Translations under genes and position numbers: made by a program | Part shown: one piece after another, positions 26,493 through 40,478 of the stretch | Layout: the number at the start of each line of letters is the position of its first letter | Numbering within the stretch: position 1 is the stretch's first letter | Assembly (NCBI RefSeq): GCF_002909235.1 | Contig: NZ_PHQQ01000012.1 | Coordinates: forward strand, 62,001 to 126,000 | From: Arenibacter catalasegens | GTDB taxonomy: Bacteria; Bacteroidota; Bacteroidia; Flavobacteriales; Flavobacteriaceae | DNA length: 64,000 bases | Direction: 5' to 3' | Notes under the pieces: model-generated | What the model was told of the DNA's origin: nothing | Database searches by the model: none | The model's input: only the letters and a program-made list of their open reading frames with translations

Positions 26493-26617
26493 GCAAATTT
26501 ACATACGACAAATCTAATTTCATAGTAAAAAGTGATAAATAATTAACTTTTATTTGTAGGCCATTAGAACCTGAAATACGTACTTTAGAATAGTACCTGC
26601 TAATACTGGAACTATTG

Positions 26618-29089
26618 ATGAACAAAACCAAAAACAAATTCACCATTAAAATAATATTCAGCTACTTAATGCTGGGGATCTTGACCCTAGTGGTGGCTTA
26701 TTTTATATTTACCGAAATAAAAGTTTTGGTGTCTACCGATACGGCTTCTGAAAACGATATTAAACTACTTAAAACAGGTTCCTTACTTACAGAATTGTAT
26801 GAGGCAGAAAGTCTTTCCAAATTAGCGCTTCAGAAAAAGACTCCCAAAAGTTTTACTGCCTATGCCCAAAAAATTGATTCCATTTTTGTTACCATTGATT
26901 CCCTTAAATTACTTACCAATATTGACTACCATAAAAATATGTTGGACAGTGTGCAAGGACTTCTTAAAAAAAAGGTGTTCAACAGCAACGAGCTCCTGAG
27001 ATTAAAAAGAAAAAACGAATCCAATAGTTCCATAGACAATGCATTAAAAGAATTTAGTAGAATAGAGGAATCTCTTGGAAAAATAACTCCGGAAAGCTTA
27101 AATCCAAATTATGCAACCCTACCTTCCGATACACAGAATACTATAAAAAAATGGGCCGAATATCTGAGTGAAAATGTGCCCAAAGACACTAGTAACATTC
27201 CAGTTTCACAAAGGGTAGATTCGGTGTTAACCGTGTCCAAATCACTTTTAGCCGAGGCCAAACAGAGTAACACCAAAACCCTCCGTTCTGTAGCGCAGAA
27301 GGAATTACAATTAAGTAGGGCCGATTTGGAAATCTCCCAACAATTGCGCAGTATTATTTCGGCCTTTGAGCAGGAGGTTATCACAAAATCCTACAATGAC
27401 AACCTCAAAAAACAAACCGCTCTAAAGAGAAGCATTCGCCTTGCTGGTTTTGCCAGCTTACTTGGCCTTGCTATAGTGGGCTTATTTACTTTTTTGATTA
27501 CCAAAGATTATTGGAAGGTCCAACTATACAGGCAACAATTAGAAAAGGAAAAAAAGTTTTCTGAATCACTTTTAAAAAGTAGGGAACAGTTGATTTCTAC
27601 GGTAAGCCATGACCTGCGCACCCCATTGAATACTATTACCGGTTATTCCGAACTTATGGAAACTACTGGACTTACGGGTAAACAGGTTTCCTATTTAAAA
27701 AATGTAAAATCAGCATCTAAATATGTGGATAGCTTGGTCAACGATCTATTGGATTTTTCTAAACTAGAAGCTGGGAAATTAAAAGTAGACAAGACCGCTT
27801 TTATTCTCTCTGACCTAATTAGGGAAACTGCGGAAAACCTTAAGGAAATAAATTCCAAAAAACCTATAGAACTTATTGTAAAATTGGACGACCAATTGGA
27901 GAACACTATTTTAGGAGATCCATTTAGGGTAAGACAAATTTTGACCAACCTTATCGCCAATGCCTATAAATTTACAAAAGAAGGTTTTATAGAAGTAGAA
28001 GCTGTTGTAGTAAGTAAGACCAACGGAAAGTATCAAACGCTTATTAAAGTCACGGATTCGGGAATTGGCATTAAAAAGGAAAAACAAGAACACATTTTTA
28101 AGGAGTTTACCCAAGCGGAGGACAATACCGATAAAAAATACGGCGGTTATGGGCTAGGACTTACCATTTCGAAAAAACTCACAGAACTTTTAGGCGGGAA
28201 GATCAGTCTCCGAAGTGACGAAAATAAAGGTAGCTCGTTTACGATAGAAATTCCTTTCGAAATATCAAAAAAGCCATTGATGTCTCCCAAGGAAATTGAA
28301 ATTCGCCCAAAAATGGAACTTTCACTTCTCATCATAGATGATGATCCGGCCATGCTAAAATTATTAAAAGAAGTTTGTCAACATTTGGGCCTTGCAGCAC
28401 ATACCTATAATAACTTTCATGATATTTTAAAAAGGGAAGAGCTTATTTACGATATGGTCTTGACCGATATACAAATGCCCAATATTACAGGTTTTGAGGT
28501 ATTAAGCCAATTACAAAACGGCAAGTACTCACATTATACCGGTCAACCAATAGTAGCCATGACCGGTAGAAAAGACTTAAAAAAGGAACATTATTTTGAG
28601 ACAGGTTTTTCAGATATCCTTCAGAAGCCTTTTACCAAAGAAATGTTCATGCAAGTATTGACCAAACTGTTCCCCGAAGCTGTACACGAAAAACCCGAAA
28701 ATAAAATCAAAACAGATATCTCTTCTGGTTCCAACTTATTTAATTTGGGAGTCATCTCCTCATTTTTAGGCGATGATGAGGAAGGTATAGCTGAAGTTTT
28801 ACAGACCTTTGTCTCCGATACTGCCGCTAACATTGAAAAACTAAAAGTAGCAGTAGATGATTTGGATATCAAGACAATCAACCTTGTTGCCCATAGAATG
28901 CTACCTATGTTCAGACAATTAAATAGTACAGAAATAGTGCCCATTTTGGATGAATTGGAAATCTTGAAAATTGGGCAAATAGACCCTAAGATTTTAAAGC
29001 AAACCTATAGGAATCTTAGTAATAAATCTACCGTTTTAATTTTGGCTATTAAATCGTATTTGGCTACAAGTCCAAATTATAGTGATTGA
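26618..29089 (+). CDS. hybrid sensor histidine kinase with receiver and HPt domains
   Basis: An 823-aa kinase from ATG 26618 (a TTG three bases earlier is in frame). Two membrane helices (about 12-32 and 274-294) flank a helical periplasmic sensor of ~240 residues. The H-box SHDLRTPLNTITG has phosphoacceptor H331; GSGIGIKK-type and GGYGLGLTISKK boxes follow. A receiver domain starts LLIIDDDPA near 570 with phospho-Asp near 615 (LTDIQMPN). A C-terminal HPt domain has its His near 758 (NLVAHRMLPMF). The HPt end implies a phosphorelay to a separate regulator, most likely the convergent sigma54 regulator whose 3' end it overlaps by 26 bp. Confidence 0.93.
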   Translation: MNKTKNKFTIKIIFSYLMLGILTLVVAYFIFTEIKVLVSTDTASENDIKLLKTGSLLTELYEAESLSKLALQKKTPKSFTAYAQKIDSIFVTIDSLKLLTNIDYHKNMLDSVQGLLKKKVFNSNELLRLKRKNESNSSIDNALKEFSRIEESLGKITPESLNPNYATLPSDTQNTIKKWAEYLSENVPKDTSNIPVSQRVDSVLTVSKSLLAEAKQSNTKTLRSVAQKELQLSRADLEISQQLRSIISAFEQEVITKSYNDNLKKQTALKRSIRLAGFASLLGLAIVGLFTFLITKDYWKVQLYRQQLEKEKKFSESLLKSREQLISTVSHDLRTPLNTITGYSELMETTGLTGKQVSYLKNVKSASKYVDSLVNDLLDFSKLEAGKLKVDKTAFILSDLIRETAENLKEINSKKPIELIVKLDDQLENTILGDPFRVRQILTNLIANAYKFTKEGFIEVEAVVVSKTNGKYQTLIKVTDSGIGIKKEKQEHIFKEFTQAEDNTDKKYGGYGLGLTISKKLTELLGGKISLRSDENKGSSFTIEIPFEISKKPLMSPKEIEIRPKMELSLLIIDDDPAMLKLLKEVCQHLGLAAHTYNNFHDILKREELIYDMVLTDIQMPNITGFEVLSQLQNGKYSHYTGQPIVAMTGRKDLKKEHYFETGFSDILQKPFTKEMFMQVLTKLFPEAVHEKPENKIKTDISSGSNLFNLGVISSFLGDDEEGIAEVLQTFVSDTAANIEKLKVAVDDLDIKTINLVAHRMLPMFRQLNSTEIVPILDELEILKIGQIDPKILKQTYRNLSNKSTVLILAIKSYLATSPNYSD

Positions 29090-30422
29090 TTTTGTTATAA
29101 AGAGTTTTCCTAGTAATCTGAAGCAATTTCGCGGCTTTGGATTTATTAAAATTTGATTGCTTAAGGGCTTTTACTATTTGTTCCTTTTCATAGTCGGCCT
29201 TCGAAAAATTGTCGATTTTCTCACTATTTACCTTGCTTTTATAGACCTCCTTGGGCAGGGCCTCTTTTTCAACAAAATCGCCGTTGGTCAACAAAACAGC
29301 CCTTTTAATTACGTTCTGTAATTCGCGTAAATTTCCCGGCCAATGGTATTGCTTAAATATCTTCTCAACATCTTCAGAAAAACCTTCCACTTTTTTACCT
29401 AAAGAATGATTGGCCTTCCTTAAAAAGAAATCCGCAAATAGTGGCAAATCTTCAAAGCGGTCCTCCAGAGACGGAATTTCAACAGAAAATTCATTGATTC
29501 TATGAAACAAATCTTCTCTAAAAGTTCCATTTTCAACGGCCTCGGTCAGGTCTTCATTGGTTGCGGTAACAATACGGACATCTACATCTATTTCTTTGGT
29601 ACTACCTACCCTTTTAATCTTTCTTTCCTGTAGTGCCCTTAATAATTGAATTTGGTTTTCATAAGAAAGGTTCCCTATTTCATCCAAAAACAAAGTACCT
29701 TTATTGGCAGCTTCAAAATGCCCTATTTTATCCTCCACGGCTCCTGTGAAACTACCTTTGATATGTCCAAAGAATTCGCTAGTCGCAATTTCTTTGGGAA
29801 TAGCCCCACAATCTACAGCTACAAATGAAAGTCCCTTTCGCTTGCTGTTGTCGTGTATTGCGCGTGCAGTGACTTCCTTTCCCGTACCACTTTCTCCGGT
29901 AATTAAAACGGACATGTCCGTTGGAGCTACAAGTTTAATATACTCGTTTAATTTTCTAGAGGCCTCACTTATACCCGCTACCACTTTATTTTCTTGAGTT
30001 TCGCCTTCGGAACTTCCTAATTTATTGTTTTCGTTTGGCGAATTATTGGATTGGTGCTTTACTTCTTGACTCAATGCACTTTTGATCTGCATTAAAATCT
30101 CCTCTGGAGTAAAAGGTTTGGAAATATAGTCATAGGCGCCCTTTTTCATAGCCTCAACTGCTGAGCCTACCTCAGCATAACCGGTCATCACAATTACCTG
30201 GGTTTTAGGATTTATGCCCTTTATATCGGATAGAAGCTGTAGTCCATCATAATTGGGAAGTCTCAAATCCGTTAATACTAGGTTATAAATGGTTTCCTTA
30301 ATTTTAAGTTTGGCATCTTGGGCCGTAAAACTAACATCTACCTCATATTCGTTTCTAATCAAAAACTTTTGAAGCATCTGACAGAAAGCGGCGTCATCTT
30401 CAATGATAAGGAGCTTGGGCAT
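29064..30422 (-). CDS. sigma54-dependent NtrC-family response regulator
   Basis: A 452-aa regulator with all three NtrC-family parts. The receiver has phospho-acceptor D52 (LTDLRLPN). The AAA+ domain has Walker A GESGTGKE near 175 and the sigma54-contact loop GSFTGA near 224. The C-terminal Fis-type helix-turn-helix reads NKSKAAKLLQITRKTLYNKI. The retained GxFTGA loop means it should activate RpoN promoters from upstream sites. It overlaps the convergent hybrid kinase gene tail-to-tail by 26 bp, and its 5' side faces three PepSY-like genes whose promoters share sigma54-like elements. Confidence 0.95.
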   Translation of the reverse strand: MPKLLIIEDDAAFCQMLQKFLIRNEYEVDVSFTAQDAKLKIKETIYNLVLTDLRLPNYDGLQLLSDIKGINPKTQVIVMTGYAEVGSAVEAMKKGAYDYISKPFTPEEILMQIKSALSQEVKHQSNNSPNENNKLGSSEGETQENKVVAGISEASRKLNEYIKLVAPTDMSVLITGESGTGKEVTARAIHDNSKRKGLSFVAVDCGAIPKEIATSEFFGHIKGSFTGAVEDKIGHFEAANKGTLFLDEIGNLSYENQIQLLRALQERKIKRVGSTKEIDVDVRIVTATNEDLTEAVENGTFREDLFHRINEFSVEIPSLEDRFEDLPLFADFFLRKANHSLGKKVEGFSEDVEKIFKQYHWPGNLRELQNVIKRAVLLTNGDFVEKEALPKEVYKSKVNSEKIDNFSKADYEKEQIVKALKQSNFNKSKAAKLLQITRKTLYNKINHYNLDL

Positions 30423-30493
30423 ACAATTCTATTACTATTTACAATGAATAGTAAAAATACCATAAGAAAGTTATTTGCCCCTATAAATTATCA

Positions 30494-30531
30494 TAAAAAA
30501 GAAGGGGATTGCATAACGCAATCCCCTTCTT
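30494..30531 (-). terminator. Rho-independent terminator of PepSY-like gene 1
   Basis: Perfect 12-bp arms GAAGGGGATTGC (30501-30512) and GCAATCCCCTTC (30518-30529) are followed on the minus strand by a run of T. Confidence 0.9.
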
Positions 30532-30571
30532 ACCAAACCAACTTGATACAAAACAAATAACTCAAGTTATA

Positions 30572-30883
30572 CTATAGTTCTATCCAATTGCCATCCTTGT
30601 CAGCATATAATGTGCCAGTTGTTCCATCTTCCAATTTTACTTCCAACTTATATTGCTCCTGCTTATTTACATAAGCCTTACTGATGGTCCCTGAAGGATA
30701 ATCAGTCGAAACCGCTGTGGCAACGGCTTCTGGTAAATTACTAGTTTCTATTTCAGAAAAGTCGTCCTGAGCTACACCAATTTGAGTAGCTTCTCCTGCT
30801 ACCCCTTCCGCATCTTGGGCAAATGCTGTTAGACTTCCTAATGATAATACGGCTACAAAAAATAATTTTTTCATGATTTTCAT
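30572..30883 (-). CDS. small secreted PepSY-like protein, paralogue 1
   Basis: A ~103-aa protein with a signal peptide (KKLFFVAVLSLGSLTAFAQ); I start at ATG 30883, with 30874 as the alternative. The mature part resembles PepSY-like proteins: FSEIETSNLPEAVATAVSTD, then ISKAYVNKQEQYKLEVKLED, and the closing YADKDGNWIEL. It is one of three tandem paralogues (the others at 31256 and 31956), each with its own promoter region and terminator. The neighbouring sigma54 regulator and hybrid kinase probably control them. Its role may be sensing or buffering in the periplasm; this is inference. Confidence 0.85.
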   Translation of the reverse strand: MKIMKKLFFVAVLSLGSLTAFAQDAEGVAGEATQIGVAQDDFSEIETSNLPEAVATAVSTDYPSGTISKAYVNKQEQYKLEVKLEDGTTGTLYADKDGNWIEL

Positions 30884-30910
30884 TTTAATAGTTAAACTTG
30901 CTATAGGTAT

Positions 30911-30927
30911 AGAAAATATGATACCAC
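30911..30927 (-). promoter_or_regulatory. sigma54-like promoter of PepSY-like gene 1
   Basis: The minus strand reads GTGGTATCATATTTTCT. Against the -24/-12 consensus TGGCAC-N5-TTGC, the -24 GG and the correctly spaced -12 C are present but the -12 G is a T. The inferred transcript start is near 30901, ~18-27 nt before the start codon. A related element precedes both paralogues. Confidence 0.45.
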
Positions 30928-30997
30928 AAAAAATAATTTCTTTAATATAAGCACAACACACTATTAATAAGCTAGTTATAGAATTAAAATTAATTTC

Positions 30998-31041
30998 TGA
31001 ACTGTGTATTTTTGGGTATCACCAAATTTTAATGGGTAAAA
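30998..31041. promoter_or_regulatory. upstream GGGTA element pair, gene 1
   Basis: GGGTATCA (31014-31021) and GGGTAAAA (31034-31041) are 20 bp apart, two helical turns, and ~113-133 bp upstream of the inferred transcript start. TGAACTGTGT at 30998 recurs upstream of paralogue 2. The position suits enhancer sites for the adjacent NtrC-type regulator. Confidence 0.4.
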
Positions 31042-31181
31042 ACTAAACACTATTCGTATATATCCTTTCCAACTTACCCTTTGTTACGACCGCTAATACT
31101 TGTACGCGAAATTTCTAAGGTAACTACTCAGGTTATTCAATTTTCATGAATGGAACAATGCAATTCCTTATAAAGAGCTAT

Positions 31182-31212
31182 AAAAAAAATGGGATCGCTA
31201 TAAACGATCCCA
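31182..31212 (-). terminator. Rho-independent terminator of PepSY-like gene 2
   Basis: Arms TGGGATCG (31190-31197) and CGATCCCA (31205-31212) pair perfectly and are followed on the minus strand by seven or more T. Confidence 0.88.
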
Positions 31213-31255
31213 TACCCGTAAGCTGTACTTACAATATTAAAATAAATAGCACTTG

Positions 31256-31558
31256 CTATCTTTCAATCCAATCTCCATCCCTATCAGCATAAACAGTACC
31301 CCTTTTACCTTCCACCAAAACTAGTTCCAACCTAAATTGCTGGGAGTTGTTCACAAATGCCTTATTGATTACCGCTGAAGGATAATAGGTCCCGATGGCA
31401 TTTGTTACTGCCACTGGCAACTCTGTAGTCTGTACTTCGGAAAATTTATCATGGGCAATGCTCATTTCTGTAACATCCACCTTTACTATTTTATTCTCTT
31501 GGGCACAAGCTCCAAGACTAGTCAACGATAAGGCAATTCCAAAAAATAACTTTCTCAT
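31256..31558 (-). CDS. small secreted PepSY-like protein, paralogue 2
   Basis: A ~100-aa protein starting at ATG 31558 with a signal peptide (RKLFFGIALSLTSLGACAQ). The mature chain parallels paralogue 1: FSEVQTTELPVAVTNAIGTY, INKAFVNNSQQFRLELVLVE, and the end YADRDGDWIER. The LGAC-like segment in the signal could be read as a lipobox, but the cut before Gln fits the paralogues better. It is monocistronic, with a sigma54-like element 35-50 bp upstream and a terminator 44 bp downstream. Confidence 0.85.
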   Translation of the reverse strand: MRKLFFGIALSLTSLGACAQENKIVKVDVTEMSIAHDKFSEVQTTELPVAVTNAIGTYYPSAVINKAFVNNSQQFRLELVLVEGKRGTVYADRDGDWIER

Positions 31559-31592
31559 GATTCTAATTTTAAATATTATTACCATAACCTAT

Positions 31593-31608
31593 AGGAAAAC
31601 AATACCAA
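31593..31608 (-). promoter_or_regulatory. sigma54-like promoter of PepSY-like gene 2
   Basis: The minus strand reads TTGGTATTGTTTTCCT, nearly identical in layout to the element before paralogue 3 (TTGGCACAATTTTCCT). The GG lies 24 bp before an inferred start at ~31582. The -12 dinucleotide is CC, one base short of canonical spacing, so the match to classical sigma54 sites is partial. Confidence 0.45.
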
Positions 31609-31674
31609 AATCAAAAATAAAGTATAATTATATGATTATCAGTTATTTACATTAGCCGGGTAGCCAATGAATAA

Positions 31675-31724
31675 TTGGGTAATACTGGGTATTACAGACA
31701 TGAACTGTGTTAAAATTACACACC
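31675..31724. promoter_or_regulatory. upstream GGGTA elements and palindromes, gene 2
   Basis: GGGTAATA (31677) and GGGTATTA (31687) are 10 bp apart, one helical turn, and include the inverted repeat GTAATAC-tgg-GTATTAC (31679-31695). TGAACTGTGT follows at 31701 and opens a second inverted repeat TGTGT...ACACA. They lie ~95-140 bp upstream of the inferred start. Confidence 0.4.
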
Positions 31725-31886
31725 TTTTCATTAAGGCGAGCATATTAATAATGATTCCAAAAACGCTTAAAGGGTAACCAAGCCCTTAATAATATTCCAA
31801 TAAAGGACATTATTATTTGATCGATAAGGAGTTAACCTTAGATACTTTTCTTGTAGTAACAAAGTAAGCAGCAGTTAACAGGTTCA

Positions 31887-31916
31887 CAAAAAAAAGGGCT
31901 GCCAAACGGCAGCCCT
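31887..31916 (-). terminator. Rho-independent terminator of PepSY-like gene 3
   Basis: Perfect arms AGGGCTGCC (31895-31903) and GGCAGCCCT (31908-31916) with a 4-nt loop, followed on the minus strand by eight T. Confidence 0.92.
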
Positions 31917-31955
31917 ACTAATTCAAATAACTAAAGTAACTACATACTTAATGCA

Positions 31956-32267
31956 TTACATATCGATCCAGTTGCCTTCGGAATCAACATACAATTCAGA
32001 ATTGGTTCCATCCGAAAAAGTAACCTCCAATTTGTATTTATCTTCCTCGTTCACATATGCTTTGTTTATTACGGCCCCAGCATGGTCTTTCTCCAACGCT
32101 TTGGTAATTGTATCCGGTAATTTATCTACATCTATTTCTGTGAAATCTTGGGCCATAATTACTTCCATAATTCCATCGTGAAAAATTGGAGGAGCTGCCA
32201 ATACAGGGCTTAAACTTCCCATTGCCAACGCTGTTGCGAAAACAAAACTTTTCATATCATTTTTCAT
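31956..32267 (-). CDS. small secreted PepSY-like protein, paralogue 3
   Basis: A 103-aa protein with a signal peptide (FVFATALAMGSLSPVLA); ATG 32255 is an alternative start four codons in. The mature chain repeats the paralogue plan with FTEIDVDKLPDTITKALEKD, INKAYVNEEDKYKLEVTFSD and the end YVDSEGNWIDM. It is the most diverged of the three at its N-terminus. A TTGGCAC-containing element lies ~46-61 bp upstream and a perfect terminator 40 bp downstream, so it is transcribed alone. Confidence 0.85.
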   Translation of the reverse strand: MKNDMKSFVFATALAMGSLSPVLAAPPIFHDGIMEVIMAQDFTEIDVDKLPDTITKALEKDHAGAVINKAYVNEEDKYKLEVTFSDGTNSELYVDSEGNWIDM

Positions 32268-32312
32268 ATCTCTTATATTTTGTGTGAATATTAATTTTGT
32301 GAAAAGGATAGA

Positions 32313-32328
32313 AGGAAAATTGTGCCAA
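32313..32328 (-). promoter_or_regulatory. sigma54-like promoter of PepSY-like gene 3
   Basis: The minus strand reads TTGGCACAATTTTCCT. TTGGCAC is an exact match to the sigma54 -24 element; the -12 half (TTTTCC instead of TTGC) is not. The inferred start is ~32302, 35-47 nt before the possible start codons. Confidence 0.5.
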
Positions 32329-32410
32329 TATTTAAATTAAAGATATATTATATGTAAGTAACTTACAATCAAATAGTTAAGTAATATTGTCAATGATTTG
32401 GAATGTGTAA

Positions 32411-32471
32411 AAATGTATAGTACCCAAAAAAGTGTATAATCTTTATACACTTTTTTGGGTACTATACATTC
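32411..32471. repeat. perfect 28-bp inverted repeat with 3-nt loop
   Basis: Arms at 32412-32439 and 32443-32470 are exactly complementary. They contain GGGTACTA (32457-32464) and its inverted copy (32418-32425), the same core seen upstream of the two paralogues. It may terminate the DUF4301 operon (it lies 80 bp after that stop, and TTTTTAC follows on the minus strand), act as an enhancer site for PepSY-like gene 3, or both. Confidence 0.85.
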
Positions 32472-32549
32472 CTAAACTTTTAATCAGCCGACAAGTGTAT
32501 CTCCTTGACAAAAATGGTCGGGGACACAAACTATATTCTGGCTACAATC

Positions 32550-34088
32550 CTATTTTACTTGATGTGCAGGTTTTAGCAAATCGTTTACCGTTTTAACTGG
32601 GTTGAAGGTACCTAATGGAACTTCCACAAATATGGTATTCCAAAAGGCCATGGCCCCATTCCATAGTCCGGGCAATTCCAAGGCTTTTAAATCCTTACCT
32701 TCTTTGGTTTTTTGGGTAATAAAACCTTGTTTGGCATCCACAAAATTTAATAGATTAAACTTCTCTCCTTTATAATTTCTAACGCCGCATACCAAATCTA
32801 CCGGATTAAAATGAGTAGAATTCTTTAAAATACTTACCTGCTCCGGGTTGGACATGTCAACTTGGGCAGACTCAATTATTTGAAGTGAAATATGATCATG
32901 GGTGTCCTTTATCCAAAATGGACCCCCTCCAGGCTCACCTTCATTCTTTACCATACCACATATGCGAATGGGCCGGTTAATCTTATCCTTTAAGATTTCT
33001 ATTTGTTGACCAATACTAAACCCATTGTATTTATCCAAAAAACGCACATTGAGGTCCTTTTCCAAGAATAATTTTATAGTTTCGAGTTTTTCGGAAGAAA
33101 GATTATCCTCGTCCAATGCCTTGGCGTATTCAAAAGTCTTGGCTTGCAATTCCAAGAGTAATCCAGCCAATATTTTTTTACTTTTGGCTACCACTCCGGA
33201 CAATCTGGGGGCAACAACATTATCTATATTCTTTATAAAAATAATATCCGCATCCTGATCATTTAAATTCTCAATCAATGACCCATGTCCCGCCGGCCGA
33301 AACAATAAGGTGTCGTCCGAATTTCGGAACGGCTTATTGTCCAAGGTCACGGCAATGGTATCAGTAGAGGGTTTTTGAAAGGAATAATTTACGGTAAATG
33401 AGGTTGAAGAGTCTTTTGCCACTCGCTCCCCTGCAGTTTTAAATTCCTTATTGAACATTTCCCCGTGCTGTTCCGAAATGGTAAAATGCAGATTAGCTTG
33501 GTTATTTACCTGTGCATAGGCAACTGCCTCCTTTAAATGTTCCTCGAAAGGAGTTGCACTATACTTACCATAATTATGAAAATACAAAAGACCTTTTGGG
33601 TAAAATCCGAAATTCAACCCTTCCGGCATCAACATCTCCTTTACGAAAAGGTATTTTTCTTCATCCGTAGACTTTGTTCTGCCAGCTATCCGCTTTAGGA
33701 TAAGGTCGTAAAAAGCAAATTTCTCGTAACCTTCAAAAAAAGTTTTAACGTCTTTATCCTTGGTCCTATCCAAATAGACCTCGAATTTTTCGGTTTTTGG
33801 GTCGTAAGTATCCAAAAAATTGAACATCGCCTTAAACATTCGTGATGCAGCTCCAGAAGCTGGTACGAATTTTAATAGTGAAATTTTATTCTTGGAATCT
33901 TCAAAGTTTTTAATGAAAGTTTCTTCCTGGGCTTCAGAAAATTTAGAAATTCCATTAGACACTATTGCTGCCTTTTCCAACCTTACAAAAGGAATACCCT
34001 CTTTAAATGTGTCTATTTGGTCTAGGACTTTTTCTTTGGAAATACCCTTCTTTTCTAATTGATTTTTGTCTGCTTCCGTTAATTCCAT
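32550..34088 (-). CDS. DUF4301 protein, nucleotidyltransferase-like
   Basis: A 512-aa cytoplasmic protein of the Bacteroidota family DUF4301. Near residue 80 it has FVPASGAASRMFKAM, resembling the G-x-G-x-R substrate loop of sugar nucleotidyltransferases. Near 265 it has LFRPAGHGSLIENLNDQDAD, resembling the uridyl-binding loop of UDP-sugar pyrophosphorylases. A nucleotidyltransferase-type activity is therefore plausible but unproven. Its start overlaps the stop of the NadR-like kinase gene (TAATG), making it the last gene of a four-gene operon. Confidence 0.88.
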   Translation of the reverse strand: MELTEADKNQLEKKGISKEKVLDQIDTFKEGIPFVRLEKAAIVSNGISKFSEAQEETFIKNFEDSKNKISLLKFVPASGAASRMFKAMFNFLDTYDPKTEKFEVYLDRTKDKDVKTFFEGYEKFAFYDLILKRIAGRTKSTDEEKYLFVKEMLMPEGLNFGFYPKGLLYFHNYGKYSATPFEEHLKEAVAYAQVNNQANLHFTISEQHGEMFNKEFKTAGERVAKDSSTSFTVNYSFQKPSTDTIAVTLDNKPFRNSDDTLLFRPAGHGSLIENLNDQDADIIFIKNIDNVVAPRLSGVVAKSKKILAGLLLELQAKTFEYAKALDEDNLSSEKLETIKLFLEKDLNVRFLDKYNGFSIGQQIEILKDKINRPIRICGMVKNEGEPGGGPFWIKDTHDHISLQIIESAQVDMSNPEQVSILKNSTHFNPVDLVCGVRNYKGEKFNLLNFVDAKQGFITQKTKEGKDLKALELPGLWNGAMAFWNTIFVEVPLGTFNPVKTVNDLLKPAHQVK

Positions 34089-39151: not shown

Positions 39152-39505
39152 TTGGAATTATCTTTGGACCTATTAAAGCTTATACTACCAGAACTATTAA
39201 TAACGCACTTCGACCTGGCCTCCCATAAAACGGAAGATGGAACGCTCCATCTATATTTTGAAGAAAAGAAGGACACCCCTAAAGAAGAAAAACATCGCAT
39301 TTTAATAGCCCATGGTTTTCATAAAGAGATAGTCGTCCAGGACTTTCCATTGAGGGGAAAATCGGTCTACCTCCACATCAAGCGCCGCCGTTGGCTTGAT
39401 AAGCGCACCAACGAAATAGTGCAGAGAAATTGGGATCTGGTAGCACAGGGAACACGGATGACCATCGAGTTCGCTGCTTTTTTAAAAGTACTTGGTCGAT
39501 ACTAG
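39152..39505 (+). CDS. IS transposase ORF1 (ISAon1-type N-terminal region)
   Basis: A 117-aa protein with LHLYFEEKKDTPKEEKHRIL near 30-50, DFPLRGKSVYLHIKRRRWLD near 63-82 and RMTIEFAAFLKVLGRY at the end. From memory the ISAon1 N-terminal ORF ends at the same place, so this looks intact. The start is uncertain: TTG 39152 is used, but the frame is open back to 39116 without an ATG. Its stop overlaps ORF2 by 14 bp. Confidence 0.85.
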   Translation: MELSLDLLKLILPELLITHFDLASHKTEDGTLHLYFEEKKDTPKEEKHRILIAHGFHKEIVVQDFPLRGKSVYLHIKRRRWLDKRTNEIVQRNWDLVAQGTRMTIEFAAFLKVLGRY

Positions 39506-40478
39506 GGCTTCGGACTGCCGCACCATAGGCCATTTCTATGGGGTCGACGGAAAGAAGCTCCAGCGACAGTACAAGGATTACTTGAGCGATTTTAAAGATT
39601 GGGAACAAAAGGGACATGCCAAACAATGGCTCATCTTTCCCGAGAATATCGGGCCATATCTGTCCATTGACGAAACGGCACTCTCCAAGGGGGAGCTCTA
39701 TACCATAATCACCAACAAAAAGGCCAAGGGCAAAAAAGGATCCATAGTGGCCATATTCTCCGGTACCAAGGTGGAACCGATCATAGAACAATTAATGAAG
39801 ATATCGGCCAAGGAAAGGGCCAAGGTCAAGGAGATCACCCTGGATATGGCAAACTCGATGAAGACCATTGCCAAAAAGTGCTTCCCCGGGGCAATACAGG
39901 TCACCGATCGCTTCCACGTACAGAAACTTGCCATAGAGGCCCTTCAGGATATCCGGATCAAACACAGATGGGACGCAATAGACCTGGAGAACGAACAGAT
40001 AAAACAGGCCAGGGCAAAGAACAGTACATTCGTCCCAAAAGAATTCAATAACGGGGATACAAGAAAGCAACTATTGGCCCGCAGCAGGTATTTACTGTAC
40101 AAGGCTCCAAATAACTGGACAGAGAACCAATACACAAGAAGCAGGATATTGTTCGATCAATATCCAGATATAAAGATTGCCTTTGACCTGGTCCAAGGGC
40201 TCAGGAACATATTCAATACGGCAACGTCCATAGAGACCGCCTATACAAAACTGGCACATTGGTACAAGGATGTAGAAAATACAGGATTTAGGGCGTTCAA
40301 CACCATCGCAAACACGATATCGCTCAACTATAGATCTATTCTGAACTATTTTATAAACAGAAGCACAAATGCATCGGCAGAATCGTTCAATGCAAAAATA
40401 AAAGCTTTTAGGGCACAGTTCAGGGGTGTGAAAAATGTAGAATTCTTCCTTTATAGACTAACTACAATCTTTGCATAA
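39492..40478 (+). CDS. IS transposase ORF2 (DDE, ISL3-like)
   Basis: About 328 codons carrying the DDE domain of ISL3-type transposases: YLSIDETALSKGELYTIITN with the first Asp, ITLDMANSMKTIAKKCFPGA-QVTDRFHV with the second, and NASAESFNAKIKAFRAQFRG with the final Glu. It is in the +1 frame relative to ORF1 and has no ATG near its beginning, so it needs a ribosomal frameshift or a non-ATG start (TTG 39492). The reading frame is uninterrupted to the stop at 40478. Confidence 0.85.
   Translation: MVDTRASDCRTIGHFYGVDGKKLQRQYKDYLSDFKDWEQKGHAKQWLIFPENIGPYLSIDETALSKGELYTIITNKKAKGKKGSIVAIFSGTKVEPIIEQLMKISAKERAKVKEITLDMANSMKTIAKKCFPGAIQVTDRFHVQKLAIEALQDIRIKHRWDAIDLENEQIKQARAKNSTFVPKEFNNGDTRKQLLARSRYLLYKAPNNWTENQYTRSRILFDQYPDIKIAFDLVQGLRNIFNTATSIETAYTKLAHWYKDVENTGFRAFNTIANTISLNYRSILNYFINRSTNASAESFNAKIKAFRAQFRGVKNVEFFLYRLTTIFA

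What the first reader, a model, noticed from the sequence alone, without database searches (positions are those of the whole stretch)
30998..32470. Paired GGGTA elements at enhancer distance upstream of all three paralogue promoters
Seen: GGGTATCA/GGGTAAAA are 20 bp apart before gene 1, and GGGTAATA/GGGTATTA are 10 bp apart before gene 2. An inverted pair of GGGTACTA lies 39 bp apart before gene 3. All lie roughly 95-160 bp upstream of the inferred transcript starts. Spacing by whole helical turns and the distance are what NtrC-family enhancer sites show. TGAACTGTGT is also shared by genes 1 and 2.
Basis: seen in the sequence. Interest (0 to 1): 0.7.

Follow-up and report, generated by a model that had tools for sequence, protein, structure and literature searches.

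The report
Four-part sigma-54 enhancer for secreted proteins
The repeated GGGTA words are pieces of a conserved four-part DNA landing pad, very likely for the regulator encoded next door, which marine flavobacteria place about 100-150 bases upstream of genes for small exported proteins and, in some relatives, of a sugar-polymer synthase gene.

Summary
The paired GGGTA words exist as described, but GGGTA is not the unit. It is one spelling (TACCC on the gene strand) of a half-site TAYMCA. Four half-sites sit on a helical grid upstream of each gene: one inverted at 0, direct ones at +10, +30 and +40. The array spans about -148 to -96 from the inferred start, before a sigma-54-type promoter. It scores above 20 bits in 62 of 68 promoter-bearing PepSY-like genes from 25 genomes. 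A DNA-only scan of 84,980 species genomes gave 63 exact matches; 55 precede a PepSY-like gene. In the own genome only these three arrays (and the reverse of one) stand out. Arrays co-occur with orthologues of the adjacent NtrC-type regulator: 24 of 25 genomes with it, 1 of 35 without. A second target, a family-2 glycosyltransferase, carries the array mirrored (complete in 2, partial in 2) in 4 genomes that have the regulator. Gene 3's inverted GGGTACTA pair is something else: the outer arms of a terminator-like hairpin built around the enhancer dyad. Binding by this regulator is inferred, not shown.

The parts
31004..31048 (-). Gene-1 enhancer array: GTTTA (slot 0, inverted), TACCCA (+10), TACCCA (+30), TACACA (+40)
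31677..31721 (-). Gene-2 enhancer array: GTGTA (0), AACACA (+10), TACCCA (+30), TACCCA (+40)
32405..32448 (-). Gene-3 enhancer array: GTATA (0), TATACA (+10), TATACA (+29), TACACA (+39)
30912..30927 (-). Gene-1 -24/-12-type promoter GTGGTATCATATTTTC
   Evidence: conserved in orthologues
31593..31608 (-). Gene-2 -24/-12-type promoter TTGGTATTGTTTTCCT
32313..32328 (-). Gene-3 -24/-12-type promoter TTGGCACAATTTTCCT
32414..32468 (-).
30572..30883 (-). Gene 1: secreted PepSY-like protein (start ATG at 30883 or 30874)
31256..31558 (-). Gene 2: secreted PepSY-like protein (start taken at 31558; the longest ORF begins at 31585)
31956..32267 (-). Gene 3: secreted PepSY-like protein (start ATG at 32267 or 32255)
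30499..30531 (-). Terminator-like hairpin after gene 1
   Evidence: pattern scan
31189..31213 (-). Terminator-like hairpin after gene 2
   Evidence: pattern scan
31895..31916 (-). Terminator-like hairpin after gene 3
   Evidence: pattern scan
29064..30422 (-). NtrC-type response regulator (receiver, sigma-54 AAA+ with GSFTGA, Fis-type HTH): the proposed enhancer-binding protein
26615..29089 (+). Hybrid histidine kinase (HisKA, HATPase, receiver; Hpt-like C-terminus by eye), convergent with the regulator: presumed partner

Best explanation
The elements form a composite upstream activating sequence for the adjacent NtrC-type response regulator. The half-site is TAYMCA (TACACA, TATACA, TACCCA, also AACACA). 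Half-sites at 0 (inverted) and +10 make a dyad of TGT-N11-ACA type; two further half-sites at +30 and +40 are direct repeats on the same helical face. Proposed mechanism: an envelope signal acts through the hybrid kinase; the phosphorylated regulator assembles on the grid at about -150 to -96 and loops to sigma-54 polymerase at the -24/-12 promoter 63-87 bp downstream; each PepSY-like gene, with its own enhancer, promoter and terminator, is switched on. In some relatives the same array, mirrored, serves a glycosyltransferase gene. Shown here: half-sites, grid, conservation, downstream genes, co-occurrence with the regulator. Inferred: binding, activation, the signal, and how the direct-repeat pair is occupied.
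For: (1) Grid: 62 of 68 PepSY-like upstream regions (75 ORFs in 25 genomes, 7 dropped for lack of a promoter match) score over 20 bits; 204 randomised regions (first-order Markov) reach at most 4.5. Anchored on the palindrome only, 59 same-strand half-site hits fall at +29/30 and 62 at +39-41 in 65 regions; of the other same-strand offsets only -12 (8) reaches 4. (3) All 55 have a -24/-12-type box 63-87 bp downstream against 14% in shuffles. (4) Own genome: three arrays plus the reverse of one, next best E 0.0185. (5) Co-occurrence with regulator orthologues, 24 of 25 against 1 of 35 (Fisher p 1.7e-14, taking species as independent). (6) Unlinked target: glycosyltransferase with mirrored array, complete in 2 and partial in 2 genomes, all with the regulator; homologues in G034 and G036, without the regulator orthologue, have no array. 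(7) rpoN is present once; the regulator has AAA+, GSFTGA and a conserved HTH.
Against: No binding or expression data. The -12 element of the PepSY promoters departs from the canonical GC (TC or CT at that place). G024 has the regulator (55% identity) but no model match. In G030 and in the Gelidibacter genome G060, with changed recognition helices, the glycosyltransferase arrays are clear while the PepSY upstream stretches examined have poor or no arrays; the G030 entry among the 24 rests on the glycosyltransferase array alone. G029 and G031 score 0.7 and 14 bits, though the model finds partial arrays there. The model and matrix were built partly on the same genomes. In the palindrome-anchored count 49 of 178 same-strand hits are scattered, and small opposite-strand peaks occur at 27, 89, 94 and 96 (4-6 each). 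G000 has at least 26 other matches to the regulator, so another enhancer-binding protein is not formally excluded.
Confidence: 0.85

Rival explanations
1. The array is bound by a different regulator, either another NtrC-family protein of the genome or an OmpR/PhoB-type factor suited to 10-bp direct repeats, and the adjacent regulator is only a neighbour.
For: Three same-strand half-sites 10 or 20 bp apart look like direct-repeat sites; G000 has 27 listed matches to the regulator in all.
Against: The inverted slot uses the same half-site; arrays track this regulator across 60 genomes and appear at an unlinked gene in 4 genomes that have it. A -24/-12-type promoter implies an enhancer-binding protein.
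Confidence: 0.1
2. The repeats act as RNA or as terminators rather than as enhancer DNA.
For: At gene 3 the dyad is the heart of a hairpin with T-rich flank, conserved with compensatory changes.
Against: Genes 1 and 2 have the same grid without a conserved hairpin (outer positions mostly pair in 9-18 of 44 regions), and the arrays lie upstream of the inferred transcript starts. Rfam has no match in 30300-32700.
Confidence: 0.03
3. Chance: short AT-rich words in AT-rich intergenic DNA.
For: GGGTA pairs alone are common in the window.
Against: Null maximum 4.5 bits against an observed median of 34.6; about 2 to 14 exact matches expected by chance in the whole collection depending on base composition, 63 found and 55 before one gene family.
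Confidence: 0.01

Closest known systems
NtrC-type enhancers of sigma-54 promoters (glnA and others; recalled, no call)
   Same: Dyad sites about 100-150 bp upstream of -24/-12 promoters, roughly three helical turns between site centres, for a response regulator with receiver, AAA+ and Fis-type HTH.
   Different: Here one dyad plus a direct-repeat pair instead of two dyads; a different half-site; a different target family.
EBP motifs of Desulfovibrio vulgaris (PMC4641369; passages and section 6 read)
   Same: Three groups of motifs there are TGT and ACA half-sites separated by 9, 11 or 12 bp; the dyad here is TGT-N11-ACA. One EBP (DVU2956) has a site described with three conserved half-sites. 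Most regulons there have one to four operons, often beside the regulator gene.
   Different: Four half-sites on a nearly fixed grid; different phylum; I did not compare the matrices.
Nla28 of Myxococcus xanthus (PMC9765219; passages read)
   Same: Enhancer-binding protein using tandem half-sites, often 3 to 5 per promoter fragment.
   Different: Different half-site (CT[C/G]CG[C/G]AG) and spacers of varying length; here the spacing is nearly fixed.
Sigma-54 regulon of Flavobacterium psychrophilum (PMC9723704; passages read)
   Same: Sigma-54 promoters in Flavobacteriaceae upstream of envelope-stress, gliding and exported-protein genes.
   Different: No occurrence of PepSY or NtrC in its main text; in the passages read no enhancer motif is described.
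PepSY-like / DUF2874 periplasmic proteins of Bacteroides (PMC2954215; search listing with start of abstract, and one search for terms)
   Same: Fold: best PDB matches of the gene-1 model are 3due and 3db7; the sequence profile matches the same two best.
   Different: The proteins here are about 100 aa, in tandem arrays beside an NtrC-type regulator.

Membership tests
NtrC-family response regulator (the proposed binder) | Receiver + sigma-54 AAA+ + Fis-type HTH | tested here: met
   PF00072, PF00158 and PF02954 all above cut-off
NtrC-family response regulator (the proposed binder) | GAFTGA loop for contact with sigma-54 | tested here: met
   GSFTGA, a variant with S for A, read in the translation; that such variants work is recalled
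NtrC-family response regulator (the proposed binder) | Binds the array and activates transcription | not testable with these tools
   Needs EMSA or DAP-seq and reporter assays
Sigma-54 promoter | -24 GG element (TTGGYAY) | tested here: met
   GG in all three genes, gene 1 as GTGG; 55 of 55 exact-match arrays have a box scoring 13 or more
Sigma-54 promoter | -12 GC element 10 bp after GG | tested here: inconclusive
   TC or CT at that place in the three window promoters; GC in three and GT in one of the four glycosyltransferase promoters
Sigma-54 promoter | rpoN in the genome | tested here: met
   One PF04552 match, E 7.8e-51
NtrC-type enhancer | Conserved sites roughly 80-200 bp upstream of the start | tested here: met
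   -148 to -96 from inferred starts
NtrC-type enhancer | Works in either orientation | tested here: inconclusive
   Mirrored arrays upstream of the glycosyltransferase in 4 genomes; that they act is inferred
NtrC-type enhancer | Two dyad sites | tested here: not met
   One dyad and one direct-repeat pair in 62 of 68 regions; fewer than 4 opposite-strand half-sites at +20 or +30 in 65 regions
PepSY_like (PF11396) | Match to the Pfam model | tested here: inconclusive
   32 of 40 family members match at E 0.01 or better, best 1.1e-5; gene 1 at 7.3e-4, below the curated cut-off; genes 2 and 3 gave no match at E 0.001; the fold search ranks PepSY-like proteins first

The most novel reading that the evidence does not exclude
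The rigid dyad-plus-direct-repeat grid reports an asymmetric enhancer complex: one regulator dimer on the dyad and two DNA-binding domains on same-direction half-sites, with the hypervariable stretch between receiver and AAA+ (residues 119-146) as a possible hinge, giving a polar landing pad. At gene 3 the dyad doubles as the upstream gene's terminator, so regulator binding and termination of DUF4301 transcripts would interfere.
Probability: 0.3. Interest if true: 0.65.

Novelty: new variant of a known kind. Interest (0 to 1): 0.55.

Why it matters
It gives a sequence-readable regulatory code, checked across tens of genomes, for a two-component system and a family of small exported proteins for which I found no described regulon in ten literature searches. 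It names promoters, half-sites and a second target (a polysaccharide-type synthase) that can be tested directly, and offers an unusual enhancer geometry for asking how enhancer-binding proteins assemble. The overlap of enhancer dyad and terminator-like hairpin at gene 3 is a clean case of one DNA word under two constraints.

Tried and rejected
GGGTAYYA as the motif: rejected, since it is one of several half-site spellings. A full dyad at +20/+30 or +30/+40: fewer than 4 opposite-strand half-sites there in 65 regions. Helical phasing of array-to-promoter distance: distances cluster at 63-65, 67, 74-77 and 87, with one at 79 and one at 134; the last (G004 g5) I take as a misplaced promoter from a start codon chosen too far into the gene. 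Direct autoregulation of the regulator gene: no array in its upstream region. Rfam: nothing at gathering scores. The paper on iron regulation in Bacteroidetes (PMC10434189; passages) mentions PepSY proteins and one sigma-54 regulator in separate places only. P. gingivalis HaeRS (PMC3764172; passages) has a DUF2874 lipoprotein gene nearby, but its regulator is given as 25 kDa, too small to be NtrC-type. Exact matches not before an intact PepSY-like gene, 8 of 63: L057 (glycosyltransferase), L102 first copy (a PepSY-like copy with one in-frame stop), L062 second and L072 (too near the end of the held stretch to judge), and L063, L074, L079, L100, which have neither a PepSY-like gene nor a close regulator orthologue, taken as chance. 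One of the 55 (L091) has its PepSY-like start 431 bp after the array; the other 54 lie within 170 bp. Model hits in G057 (E 0.0075) and G357 (E 3.3e-4), which hold no close regulator orthologue, are also taken as chance.
Full report
What was claimed and what is there. GGGTA itself is common in the window: 126 copies on both strands and 9 neighbouring pairs within 45 bp, 4 of them outside the stated interval. The pairs alone would therefore not be convincing. TGAACTGTGT is commoner than chance allows (2 seen, 0.06 expected).

Surroundings. The window lies in G000:C4:62001-126000. Fifteen relatives carry contigs whose lengths equal those of named records in the later scan, mostly Arenibacter plus Zobellia uliginosa and Pseudozobellia thermophila, so the window is probably from Arenibacter. 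Three small secreted PepSY-like genes are followed by an NtrC-type response regulator gene, and a hybrid histidine kinase gene converges on it. Each PepSY-like gene has its own terminator-like hairpin and its own -24/-12-type promoter, TTGGYAY (GTGGTAT in gene 1) followed by a T-rich -12 region. The locus was found in 24 other genomes with regulator orthologues of 55-92% identity, with 1 to 7 matches per locus to the PepSY-like profile, some of them short (65-73 aa) ORFs.

The real unit. Reading the upstream regions of orthologues showed that GGGTA (TACCC on the gene strand) alternates with TACAC, TATAC and AACAC at the same places. A half-site matrix was refined on 68 promoter-bearing regions (75 ORFs; 7 dropped because no promoter match of at least 13 was found). 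It gave one geometry: inverted half-site at 0, direct ones at +10, +30 and +40. In one search, 62 of 68 regions score over 20 bits; the linker between the two pairs (start to start) is 20 bp in 42 of these 62, 19 in 16, 21 in 3 and 18 in 1. 204 first-order Markov randomisations of the regions never exceed 4.5 bits. Because the matrix was trained on the grid, I also anchored on the palindrome alone: same-strand half-sites then pile up at +29/30 (59 hits) and +39 to +41 (62 hits) in 65 regions. Of the other same-strand offsets from -60 to +99 only -12 (8) and the dyad's own +10 (62) reach 4; 49 of 178 hits other than at +10 are scattered. On the opposite strand 27, 89, 94 and 96 have 4 to 6 hits besides 63 at 0. 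Slot use differs: TACCC is commonest at +30 (30 of 62), TACAC at the other three slots.

Out-of-sample test. The pattern GTNTA-N5-TAYMCA-N14-TAYMCA-N4-TAYMCA was scanned over one genome for each of 84,980 species. It has 63 exact matches in 56 stretches; 55 lie before a PepSY-like gene, 54 of them within 170 bp and one (L091) at 431 bp. The chance expectation for the whole collection is about 2 with equal base frequencies and up to about 14 at 70% A+T. All 55 have a -24/-12-type box after the array, at 63-64, 67, 74-77 or 87 bp, when the best box between 45 and 110 bp is taken; mononucleotide shuffles give one in 14%. The eight other matches are accounted for in Tried and rejected.

Who binds. 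A sequence-only model of the array finds in the own genome the three arrays, the reverse of the gene-3 palindrome, and nothing else better than E 0.0185. In 60 relatives, 24 of the 25 genomes with a regulator orthologue have a match at E 0.01 or better and 1 of the 35 without does (G057, E 0.0075) (Fisher p 1.7e-14, which treats species as independent and is therefore too small). In G030 the match is at the glycosyltransferase described below, not at the PepSY-like genes; in G029 and G031 the matches are partial. In a sample of 295 genomes of the class, the only matches at E 0.001 besides G000 are in G131 and G167, two genomes of one other genus of the family, and in G357. G167 has three of the four half-sites before a row of four PepSY-like genes, with the regulator orthologue (61% identity) about 1.9 kb further on; G131 has the orthologue at 60%. 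The recognition-helix stretch (residues 427-445) is 84-100% identical to the window's in the orthologues aligned, except 68% in G030 and in G060 (Gelidibacter), whose PepSY upstream stretches have poor or no arrays; G024 was not in that alignment. The linker between receiver and AAA+ domain is hypervariable.

A second target. In Gelidibacter (L057), G030, G131 and G167 an array lies upstream of a family-2 glycosyltransferase gene (PF13641, PF00535 for the Gelidibacter protein), in each case mirrored relative to the gene. It is complete in Gelidibacter (exact match) and in G030 (linker 22, 38.6 bits), and partial in G131 and G167 (model positions 3-47 and 1-45). The boxes are TTGGCATAAGTGTTGC, TTGGCATAAGTGTTGC, ATGGCACATGCCTTGC and TTGGCACGCCACTTGT. 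All four genomes have the regulator. Homologues of this glycosyltransferase in G034 and G036, which lack the regulator orthologue, have no array in the stretch examined. G024 has both genes but no array by this model. Arenibacter itself has only distant glycosyltransferase matches.

Gene 3. The inverted GGGTACTA pair is the outer part of a perfect 26-bp hairpin whose inner arms are the enhancer dyad, about 80 bp after the stop of the DUF4301 gene. In 18 gene-3-type regions the mean hairpin energy is -21.7 kcal/mol with 5.9 T in the 9 bases after the dyad, against -6.6 and 2.7 in 44 other arrays. Pairing persists outwards, with changes on both sides at 8 of 17 pairs and 89% of cells paired, and no shuffle of 500 reaches the covariation score (the tool warns that related sequences can exceed shuffles without structure). 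In G003 and G009 the outer arms read AGTCCCC/GGGGACT, in G015 AAGGCGCTT/AAGCGCCTT: complementarity is kept while GGGTA is not. The outermost pairs are weaker: columns 9, 10 and 12 are unpaired in 7, 10 and 8 of 18 sequences. I read this as a terminator of the upstream gene built around an enhancer dyad; termination itself is not shown.

The regulated proteins. They are about 100 aa with a signal-peptide-like N-terminus (by eye); 32 of 40 family members match PF11396 at E 0.01. The gene-1 model is confident only over the C-terminal domain (mean pLDDT 74; 83-93 per block from residue 41). Its best PDB matches are Bacteroides PepSY-like periplasmic proteins 3due and 3db7 (Foldseek E 0.01 and 0.025, none at 0.001 or better; profile search E 7.5e-6 for 3db7 and 1.1e-5 for 3due). 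Their function is unknown; an envelope-stress or surface role is my inference from their export, the kinase and the glycosyltransferase target.

Mechanism and its limits. The most likely mechanism is classical enhancer-dependent activation of sigma-54 polymerase by the neighbouring regulator. Shown: sequence, geometry, conservation, position, downstream genes and co-occurrence. Inferred: binding, phosphorylation, activation, signal. Against: the -12 element of the PepSY promoters lacks the canonical GC; a few regulator-bearing genomes have weak arrays; nothing was tested at the bench. Novelty: ten literature searches listed no paper that I could recognise as describing a sigma-54 or NtrC-type regulon of PepSY-like proteins in this group; several searches listed only their top rows, and the library holds open-licence papers only, so this is not proof of absence. 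A 2025 survey of sigma-54 regulons that covers Flavobacteriia has no occurrence of PepSY in its main text (PMC12316311; passages). Multi-half-site enhancers are known, so this is a new variant of a known kind.

Noticed in passing
window 30572-32267 and orthologous loci L031-L054: The number of PepSY-like genes differs between species (1 to 7 profile matches per locus), with similar tandem copies that carry their enhancer and promoter along (G003, G004) and one copy with an in-frame stop behind an intact array and promoter (L102).
   Followed up: partly
G012:C56:263421 (L127) and G008:C26:16061 (L137): The gene-3-type PepSY gene lies apart from the regulator together with the DUF4301-like gene upstream of it (about 18 kb away in G012, about 30 kb in G008) and has kept its array.
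   Followed up: partly
L042, L043, L047 and L126: Short PepSY-like ORFs (65-73 aa, starting METIF, MEDDY or MENNF) without an evident signal peptide sit between the arrays in four genomes of the window's genus; the three in L042, L043 and L047 were tested and show no good promoter match or array.
   Followed up: no
window 26615-29089: The hybrid kinase ends in a stretch that looks like an Hpt domain (VAHRML by eye; no Pfam match at E 0.001), which would make a phosphorelay to the regulator.
   Followed up: no
P. gingivalis PG0717-PG0720 (PMC3764172) and B. thetaiotaomicron BT0922-BT0923 (PMC10434189): A lipoprotein with four DUF2874 domains is encoded near an unrelated two-component system in P. 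gingivalis, and a table row lists BT0922 PepSY-like proteins with a PAS sensor kinase: PepSY-like genes beside two-component systems may recur in the phylum.
   Followed up: no
window 39492-40478: ORF of 328 aa that looks like a transposase, a few kb outside the conserved block (by eye).
   Followed up: no
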